Shown: piece after piece, positions 16,534 through 19,273 of the stretch
Numbering within the stretch: position 1 is the stretch's first letter
Layout of the letters: every line of letters starts with the position of its first letter
NCBI GenBank assembly: GCA_947498625.1
Contig: CANMKR010000001.1
Location: 674,090-738,089 of the forward strand
Reading direction: 5' to 3'
DNA: 64,000 nucleotides
Source: an uncultured Kangiella sp.
Lineage (GTDB): Bacteria; Pseudomonadota; Gammaproteobacteria; Enterobacterales; Kangiellaceae
Notes under the pieces: generated by a model
Told to the model about the DNA's origin: nothing
What the model saw: only the letters and a program-made list of their open reading frames with translations
Databases searched by the model: none
Program-made: the position numbers and the translations under genes

Positions 16534-17848
<1,315 letters not shown>

Positions 17849-17862
17849 TTAAAGTTTACAAT

Positions 17863-17890
17863 AAAAATCGGGCTTCAAGCCCGATTTTTT
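17863..17890 (+). terminator. Strong intrinsic terminator between mreB and mreC
   Basis: A 13-bp stem AAAAATCGGGCTT / AAGCCCGATTTTT around a C ends in a six-T run (17885-17890). It is symmetric and would work in both directions. It implies that mreCD depend on readthrough or on a separate promoter in the 65 bp before mreC. Confidence 0.9.
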
Positions 17891-17955
17891 ATATGATGGT
17901 TTTATTAAAATACAGTATTAAAAAATAGTAATTAAATAGTTAGGGGTAGTTAGCT

Positions 17956-18801
17956 ATTAAAACAATATTCACTCAAGGTCCTTCTTTATTAATCCAATTA
18001 TTATTGGTGCTTATAACTTGCTCTAGCATGATGGTACTTGATTACCGCTACCAATATTTGAACTCAGTACGCAGTACTTTTTCAACATTGGCTTCTCCAG
18101 TTTATTATGTAGCAAATTTACCCAGTGAAATCAGCGTTTGGGCAGATGATAACATTGTCAGTCGAGCTGATTTGATCGATGAGAATCAAAACTTAAAAGA
18201 TCAGCTGATGATACTAAAAGCACAGAACCAGCGATTGGTAGGTTTAGAATCAGATAATGCTCAATTACGTAAACTACTTAATTCATCAAGAAAATTAAAA
18301 GGTAAACGCCTGATTGCGGAAATTATTAATGTGAACACTAATAATTATGCGCAAGAAATCATGGTCAACAAAGGCTCGAGTGATGGATTATACGTTGGTC
18401 AGTCCGCTGTCGATTCTGATGGTGTTATGGGACAGGTAATTGAAGTGACCCTATTTTGGAGTCGAATTATTTTGATTAATGATCCCAATCATGCCATTCC
18501 AGTTAAAAATAATCGAAATGGTATTCGGGCGATAGCAAGAGGTAATGGTCTTAACTTAAATGTTATGCATTTACCAAGTACCATCGATATTAAGCAAGGT
18601 GATTTATTATTAAGTTCGGGTTTGGGTGAAAAATTTCCTGATGGTTACCCTGTCGCCAAAGTAGTGTCAGTGACTAAAAATTCGGATCAACCTTATTTAG
18701 AAGTTATTGCGGAGCCGACAGCCAATATCAATACAGCAGATCATGTGTTGCTACTTTGGGAAACAGCAACCCAAGAGTTGGAGGCAACCAATGAGCAATA
18801 G
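17956..18801 (+). CDS. mreC: Rod-shape determining protein MreC, AUU start
   Basis: The 281-residue protein links MreB to periplasmic synthesis enzymes. Homology to E. coli MreC starts at MKPIFSRGPSL; here the same frame reads ATT AAA ACA ATA TTC ACT CAA GGT. No ATG, GTG or TTG lies between the in-frame stop at 17947 and this block; the next such codon (TTG 18004) would delete it and part of the membrane span. ATT at 17956 has AGGGG nine bases upstream. After the membrane helix comes a coiled coil (about 65-105) and the beta domain ending in HVLLLW. It overlaps mreD by 11 bp. The start is inferred; the gene is certain. Confidence 0.9.
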   Translation: MKTIFTQGPSLLIQLLLVLITCSSMMVLDYRYQYLNSVRSTFSTLASPVYYVANLPSEISVWADDNIVSRADLIDENQNLKDQLMILKAQNQRLVGLESDNAQLRKLLNSSRKLKGKRLIAEIINVNTNNYAQEIMVNKGSSDGLYVGQSAVDSDGVMGQVIEVTLFWSRIILINDPNHAIPVKNNRNGIRAIARGNGLNLNVMHLPSTIDIKQGDLLLSSGLGEKFPDGYPVAKVVSVTKNSDQPYLEVIAEPTANINTADHVLLLWETATQELEATNEQ

Positions 18802-19273
18802 CAAAAGAGGGACCTGGTTAATATTGCTGTCTTTAACGGTAGCCATGGTTTTAACTTTGTTTCCGATGCCTGACTCATGGCAAATTTGGCGACCATCTTG
18901 GGTTATGTTGGTATTGAGCTTTTGGGTCTTATATATTCCGGAAAGAGTCGGTTTGTTTTGGGCATTGATAGTTGGTCTAATGCTGGACGTGATTTTAAAT
19001 ACCAGTATGGGCTTGCATGGATTTGCATTGGCAATCACTACTTTCATTCTGCAATTATTGTATAAGAGAATTCGTCTCTTCCCTTTATGGAAACAAGGCC
19101 TATCACTAGCTATCGTAAGTGCGGTTTATTTAGCTATAACCTATTGGTTAGGACGTTTAACGGGTAAGTCAATTGATACATTGCCATGGATCGGAATTGT
19201 CTTAAATGGAATCTTATGGCCTTGGATTTATCTGCTATTAAAGCAAATCGCGGGTTATTTTAAGGTTAAATAA
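18791..19273 (+). CDS. mreD: Rod-shape determining membrane protein MreD
   Basis: The 160-residue inner-membrane protein has five to six hydrophobic spans and the family phrases PSWVMLVLSFWVLYIPERVG and GLMLDVILNTSMGLHGFA. The ATG at 18791 gives MSNSKRGTW and overlaps the mreC end by 11 bp, indicating translational coupling. It works with MreBC in the elongasome. maf begins 2 bp after its stop. Confidence 0.94.
   Translation: MSNSKRGTWLILLSLTVAMVLTLFPMPDSWQIWRPSWVMLVLSFWVLYIPERVGLFWALIVGLMLDVILNTSMGLHGFALAITTFILQLLYKRIRLFPLWKQGLSLAIVSAVYLAITYWLGRLTGKSIDTLPWIGIVLNGILWPWIYLLLKQIAGYFKVK

What the first reader, a model, noticed from the sequence alone, without database searches (positions are those of the whole stretch)
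17942..18006. mreC appears to start at an AUU codon
The family N-terminus (K-x-IF-x-x-GPSL) is encoded from 17959, but no ATG, GTG or TTG lies between the in-frame stop at 17947 and TTG 18004. The codon in the Met position is ATT, with AGGGG nine bases before it. AUU starts are known for infC and pcnB, where they limit or autoregulate expression through IF3. AUU on a shape gene would be new to me and could couple MreC level to initiation fidelity.
Basis: partly seen in the sequence, partly recalled or inferred. Interest (0 to 1): 0.72.

Follow-up and report, generated by a model that had tools for sequence, protein, structure and literature searches.

The report
Shape gene mreC starts at AUU
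In this bacterium, and it seems across much of its wide bacterial class, a gene needed for rod shape begins with a rare, weak start codon instead of AUG, which probably keeps its protein scarce; at least one published protein numbering appears to miss this.

Summary
The window is Kangiella. mreC has no ATG, GTG or TTG between the in-frame stop at 17947 and TTG 18004, and ATT 17956 sits at the Met position. All 20 congeneric genomes read, and all 20 read from other genera of the family, have ATT, ATC or ATA there. Of 202 loci of its GTDB class, 128 read as AUU/AUC/AUA ("AUH"), 52 AUG, 15 GUG/UUG, 1 GUU and 6 unclear (one unclear one is AUA). E. coli has AUG. Only 11 of 128 AUH loci have a canonical codon at or upstream of the start in frame, against 181 of 182 for mreB. 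AUH starts carry strong Shine-Dalgarno sequences, AUG starts weak ones. In a Pseudomonas-like genus 25 of 25 genomes are AUH; published P. aeruginosa MreC numbering fits a start 16 codons late, inside the membrane helix. The likeliest role is to keep MreC, and coupled MreD, low relative to MreB. Coupling to IF3 is plausible but untested. My open-access searches found no report of it.

The parts
16805..17848 (+). mreB, ATG start
   Evidence: Pfam PF06723 E 5.1e-146; TIGR00904 over cut-off
17865..17890 (+). terminator-like hairpin and T-run between mreB and mreC, a likely brake on read-through into mreCD
   Evidence: fold; like hairpins in 18 of 19 Kangiella genomes scored. The generic scan did not list it
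17942..17946 (+). Shine-Dalgarno sequence AGGGG of mreC
   Evidence: anti-SD duplex -6.5 kcal/mol for UUAGGGGUA
17935..17958 (+). predicted small hairpin that pairs the AUU start codon with 17935-17937; conservation not tested
   Evidence: MFE and centroid; the whole stretch is only z -1.63 against shuffles
17956..17958 (+). AUU start codon of mreC
17956..18801 (+). mreC read from AUU (281 residues with initiator Met)
18004..18006 (+). TTG, the first canonical start downstream in frame; rejected as start because it lies inside the membrane helix
   Evidence: best 19-residue hydropathy falls from 2.30 to 0.78 if translation begins here
18791..19273 (+). mreD, ATG start overlapping the end of mreC (probable translational coupling)
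   Evidence: Pfam PF04093 E 6.6e-26

Best explanation
Translation of mreC begins at AUU 17956, read by initiator tRNA as Met behind a Shine-Dalgarno sequence. AUU or AUC is the likely ancestral start codon of mreC in GTDB Gammaproteobacteria. The poor codon, offset by a strong Shine-Dalgarno sequence, fixes a low rate of MreC synthesis relative to MreB from the same gene cluster, and of MreD, whose start overlaps or abuts the end of mreC. In Kangiella a terminator-like hairpin after mreB probably adds a second brake. Lineages that switched to AUG (such as E. coli) tend to have a weak Shine-Dalgarno sequence instead. Shown by comparison: the start position, its conservation, and the association of codon with Shine-Dalgarno strength. 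Inferred: low output as the selected property, coupling of MreD, and sensitivity to IF3.
For: Conservation: AUH in 20 of 20 Kangiella and 20 of 20 other family genomes read and 128 of 202 loci. Matched control: a canonical codon lies between the in-frame stop and the aligned start (+2 codons) in 11 of 128 AUH mreC loci, 52 of 52 AUG mreC loci (by definition) and 181 of 182 mreB rows. Strictly upstream, 118 of 128 AUH loci have none, and 33 of 128 have at most three codons between stop and AUH. Of 102 AUH loci with a Shine-Dalgarno core of 4 or more bases, 89 have aligned spacing 5-8 (before four start positions were corrected). SD duplex median -6.9 (AUH, 128) against -2.9 (AUG, 52), p 2e-15; upstream background -2.4 and -2.2. 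ATA is used 20 times in 128 against 9.4 expected from internal Ile codons of mreB and mreC in the same loci, and in loci over 55% GC 11 of 52 against 1.7. In L177 and L198 the frame is three codons longer and ATC again directly follows the stop. The next canonical start lies past the start of the membrane-helix window in 119 of 128. P. aeruginosa residue numbers P114, F115, R175, E188, R190 (PMC8137920) fit, of five starts tried on a near relative, only GTG codon 17. About 180 MreC per E. coli cell, and excess MreC alters shape (PMC7793260, passages).
Against: No ribosome profiling or N-terminal peptide was seen. The rate AUH to ATG is not clearly below the rate of transversions among AUH codons (p 0.31), so selection against ATG as such is only modestly supported (p 0.014 against a mutation-only model, 0.057 for ATA-to-ATG alone). 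With the tree taken into account, independent pairs for AUH/AUG against SD strength give median p 0.06, 0.06 and 0.03 at three thresholds. 14 of 52 AUG and 7 of 15 GUG/UUG loci also have an SD of -5 or stronger, and 20 of 128 AUH loci do not. Some Kangiella relatives score weakly, e.g. -3.7 in L011. 39 of 202 codon classes, the 6 unclear among them, were set by eye. In the other families of the order only 7 of 39 loci are AUH.
Confidence: 0.82

Rival explanations
1. The AUH start makes mreC a member of an IF3-responsive set with infC: when free IF3 falls relative to ribosomes, MreC and MreD rise, so elongasome capacity follows initiation capacity.
For: Same codon class as infC, which I read by eye as AUH in 28 of 30 loci of the class. 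In S. aureus the relative efficiency of the ccpN AUA start rose in rich medium (PMC13009471 passages). Switches among AUU, AUC and AUA are free, while AUG-to-AUH change has a fitted rate of zero.
Against: No expression data. In the same S. aureus work citZ AUA responded only modestly and cvfC1 AUU not at all. Lineages with AUG mreC, E. coli among them, do without it. Parsimony does allow about 1.7 canonical-to-AUH changes.
Confidence: 0.3
2. Translation begins downstream at a canonical codon (TTG 18004 here; GTG codon 17 in the Pseudomonas-like genus), as the published P. aeruginosa numbering assumes.
For: A canonical codon exists within 60 codons downstream in all 128 AUH loci.
Against: It lies past the start of the membrane-helix window in 119 of 128 loci; the K-x-I/L-F block upstream would be untranslated, yet it recurs as protein from the family to the wider class; the Shine-Dalgarno sequence lies at the AUH.
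Confidence: 0.04
3. The Ile is internal and translation begins further upstream at some other non-canonical codon or by frameshifting.
For: Variation among ATT, ATC and ATA is synonymous for Ile; 10 of 128 loci have an upstream in-frame canonical codon, and 24 of 128 have a canonical codon or CTG upstream.
Against: 33 of 128 loci have three codons or fewer between stop and AUH, and where there are one or two they are mixed (GCC most often; also CCA, GTT, ACC, GCG and others); ATA excess over internal Ile usage; SD spacing. Out-of-frame upstream starts were not tested.
Confidence: 0.04

Closest known systems
infC (IF3) AUU/AUC/AUA start
   Same: AUH start, read by eye in 28 of 30 loci of the same class; a low-efficiency start on a gene whose dose matters (recalled)
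   Different: infC is said to be self-regulated through its AUU (PMC9410913 passage); mreC encodes a membrane shape protein with no known role in translation (recalled)
E. coli pcnB AUU start
   Same: inefficient AUU start that limits translation (title of Binns and Masters 2002 as cited in PMC9410913; that paper itself not seen)
   Different: in 28 pcnB loci printed (2 of 30 not found) the apparent starts look mixed (by eye)
S. aureus cvfC1 (AUU) and ccpN (AUA)
   Same: conserved non-canonical AUH starts with strong extended SD, found by Ribo-Ret and lowering yield (PMC13009471 passages)
   Different: other phylum (recalled), other genes; there backed by experiment

Membership tests
genes with a conserved AUU-class start codon (infC, pcnB kind) | no canonical start codon available at the family N-terminus | tested here: met
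   canonical codon between stop and start +2 in 11 of 128 AUH loci against 181 of 182 mreB rows; next one downstream past the start of the helix window in 119 of 128
genes with a conserved AUU-class start codon (infC, pcnB kind) | codon conserved among relatives | tested here: met
   40 of 40 family genomes read; 128 of 202 loci of the class
genes with a conserved AUU-class start codon (infC, pcnB kind) | initiation shown at the codon by experiment | not testable with these tools
   needs Ribo-seq or N-terminal peptides
IF3-regulated genes | expression changes with IF3 level because of the start codon | not testable with these tools
   no expression data
MreC | MreC core domain and mreB-mreC-mreD order | tested here: met
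   PF04085, TIGR00219, PF06723, PF04093

The most novel reading that the evidence does not exclude
mreC is, with infC, an ancient AUH-start gene of Gammaproteobacteria, forming a small IF3-sensitive set by which translation-initiation capacity sets elongasome dose and so cell width.
Probability: 0.25. Interest if true: 0.88.

Novelty: new member of a known kind. Interest (0 to 1): 0.72.

Why it matters
E. coli is said to have only two AUU-start genes (PMC9410913 passage), so such starts pass for oddities. A further gene that keeps AUU/AUC/AUA in much of a bacterial class, with a different Shine-Dalgarno strength where the codon is AUG, suggests weak starts used as a long-lived dosage device on a morphogenesis gene. 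It also suggests that MreC starts are wrong in some annotation: the published P. aeruginosa numbering fits a start inside the membrane helix, so a construct called full-length by it would lack the cytoplasmic end and part of the helix. How many database entries are affected was not examined. Start callers that allow only ATG, GTG and TTG will miss it.

Tried and rejected
Sequencing error or private mutation: rejected by conservation. Start at TTG 18004, or further upstream: see rivals. Ordinary Ile codon usage: rejected by the ATA excess. Strong selection against ATG at the third base: only modest support. RNA structure as cause: the start hairpin was not followed (whole stretch z -1.63). The terminator-like hairpin between mreB and mreC is usual in Kangiella (18 of 19 scored) but present in only 26 of 114 AUH, 7 of 50 AUG and 0 of 15 GUG/UUG loci (shuffled expectation 0.35, 0.3 and 0), so it is not the common rule. 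Outside the class: the 11 same-phylum loci printed (L276, L278, L281, L285, L287-L289, L291, L292, L294, L300) lack the K-x-I/L-F N-terminus; I did not call their starts. pcnB was read by eye and gave a mixed picture.

My first mreB control (a canonical codon within 12 codons of the aligned start in 182 of 182 rows judged, 2 at an edge) is too loose to compare; one search replaces it with one measure for both genes. At the exact aligned mreB position 149 of 182 are canonical, 1 AUH and 32 other; most of the 32 as printed have M one to three residues earlier. The mreD figure (62 of 62) searched for canonical codons only, so it shows that one is available, not that it is used. A first motif script misplaced the start of L016-L018; two searches found and corrected this, and L091 too. 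Searches were run before; no codon class changed. A genus script with a faulty pattern found nothing and was replaced.

Full report
What is there. The window is from Kangiella (nearest named record Kangiella sp. HZ709, MreC 99% identical). The genes mreB, mreC and mreD lie in order. In the mreC frame the stop TAG 17947 is followed by TTA GCT ATT AAA ACA ATA TTC; ATT 17956 is where E. coli MreC has Met (E. coli reads ATG AAG CCA ATT TTT). No ATG, GTG or TTG lies between 17947 and TTG 18004.

How far it reaches. I read the start of mreC in 202 loci: the window, a named Coxiellaceae locus, E. coli K-12, 78 relatives and 121 further genomes from the class search (loci fetched; read). The classes are ATT 60, ATC 48, ATA 20, ATG 52, GTG 12, TTG 3, GTT 1, unclear 6; 39 were set by eye. 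By kinship: genus 20 of 20 AUH; other genera of the family 19 of 20 with one unclear, which reads ATA; other families of the order 7 of 39 AUH, 30 ATG, 1 TTG, 1 unclear; rest of the class 81 of 121 AUH, 21 ATG, 14 GTG or TTG, 1 GTT, 4 unclear. On a FastTree of MreB plus MreC without its N-terminus (184 of the 202), AUH lies on both sides of the midpoint root, and one group of 30 rows with E. coli in it is 29 ATG and one TTG. In a simple likelihood model the root is ATT or ATC and the fitted ATG-to-AUH rate is zero; parsimony allows about 1.7 changes from a canonical codon to AUH against 14.3 the other way and 35.3 within AUH. The 11 same-phylum loci printed have a different N-terminus, and their starts were not called.

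Why the AUH codon is the start. In 118 of 128 AUH loci no canonical codon lies upstream in frame, and 33 have three codons or fewer after the stop. On one measure for both genes, a canonical codon is found between stop and start +2 in 11 of 128 AUH mreC loci and 181 of 182 mreB rows. The Shine-Dalgarno duplex is strong (median -6.9 kcal/mol) against an upstream background of -2.4, and 89 of 102 loci with a core of 4 or more bases have aligned spacing 5-8. The first canonical codon downstream lies past the start of the membrane-helix window in 119 of 128 loci. ATA is twice as common as internal Ile codons predict, and in loci over 55% GC 11 of 52 against 1.7 expected. infC, known for such starts, was read by eye as AUH in 28 of 30 loci; one looked like GTG and one was not resolved, and five of the 28 (L213, L214, L228, L236, L238) also have a canonical codon upstream in frame.

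Pseudomonas. Two genomes of one genus have MreC 94% identical over 173 residues to PDB chain 6zlv. The accession occurs in PMC8137920 (its passage was not shown), a paper on P. aeruginosa MreC (abstract and passages). All 25 genomes searched in that genus have AUC (23), AUU (1) or AUA (1); two of the 25 also have an upstream canonical codon. The paper's residues P114, F115, R175, E188 and R190 were tried on one of these relatives, L272, with five start codons; all five residues match only for GTG, codon 17. The paper puts the cytoplasmic and membrane parts in the first 14 residues. So the form in use most likely lacks 16 residues.

How it most likely works. AUH starts go with strong, AUG starts with weak Shine-Dalgarno sequences (-6.9 against -2.9, p 2e-15; with the tree in account median p 0.03 to 0.06). 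This fits selection for low output by either of two routes. MreC is scarce in E. coli and its excess disturbs shape (PMC7793260 passages). An mreD-sized frame opens with a canonical codon within 38 bases before to 8 bases after the mreC stop in the 55 AUH loci that could be scored, 45 of them overlapping, so MreD should be held down too. In Kangiella a terminator-like hairpin after mreB (18 of 19 genomes scored) would add to it. Whether IF3 level changes MreC in life is open.

Limits. There is no experiment. The class sample is top-weighted and not random, with 40 of 202 loci from one family. The case for selection against ATG itself is modest. Searches for a report in print were made, in an open-access library that lacks most subscription papers. 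Of eight papers opened I saw passages only; none of these passages reports it.

Noticed in passing
window 17865-17890: Terminator-like hairpin between mreB and mreC, with like hairpins in 18 of 19 Kangiella genomes scored; it may make many mreB transcripts end before mreCD.
   Followed up: partly
window 17935-17958: Predicted hairpin that pairs the AUU start codon; conservation not tested.
   Followed up: no
L154, start region: One class member has GTT where AUH is expected, behind GGAGG at normal spacing; possibly a GUU start.
   Followed up: no
L177 and L198, start region: ATC directly after the stop TAA with an N-terminus three codons longer than usual.
   Followed up: partly
L116: mreC split over two frames in this draft genome, with an ATA start; frameshift or assembly error.
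   Followed up: no
L241-L270: pcnB shows a mix of apparent start codons across the class, some AUH and some ATG.
   Followed up: no
literature, PMC13192273 passage: A Cupriavidus metallidurans strain gained two mutations between mreB and mreC; the authors suspect a small RNA, but the mreC start region may be the target. The positions were not seen.
   Followed up: no
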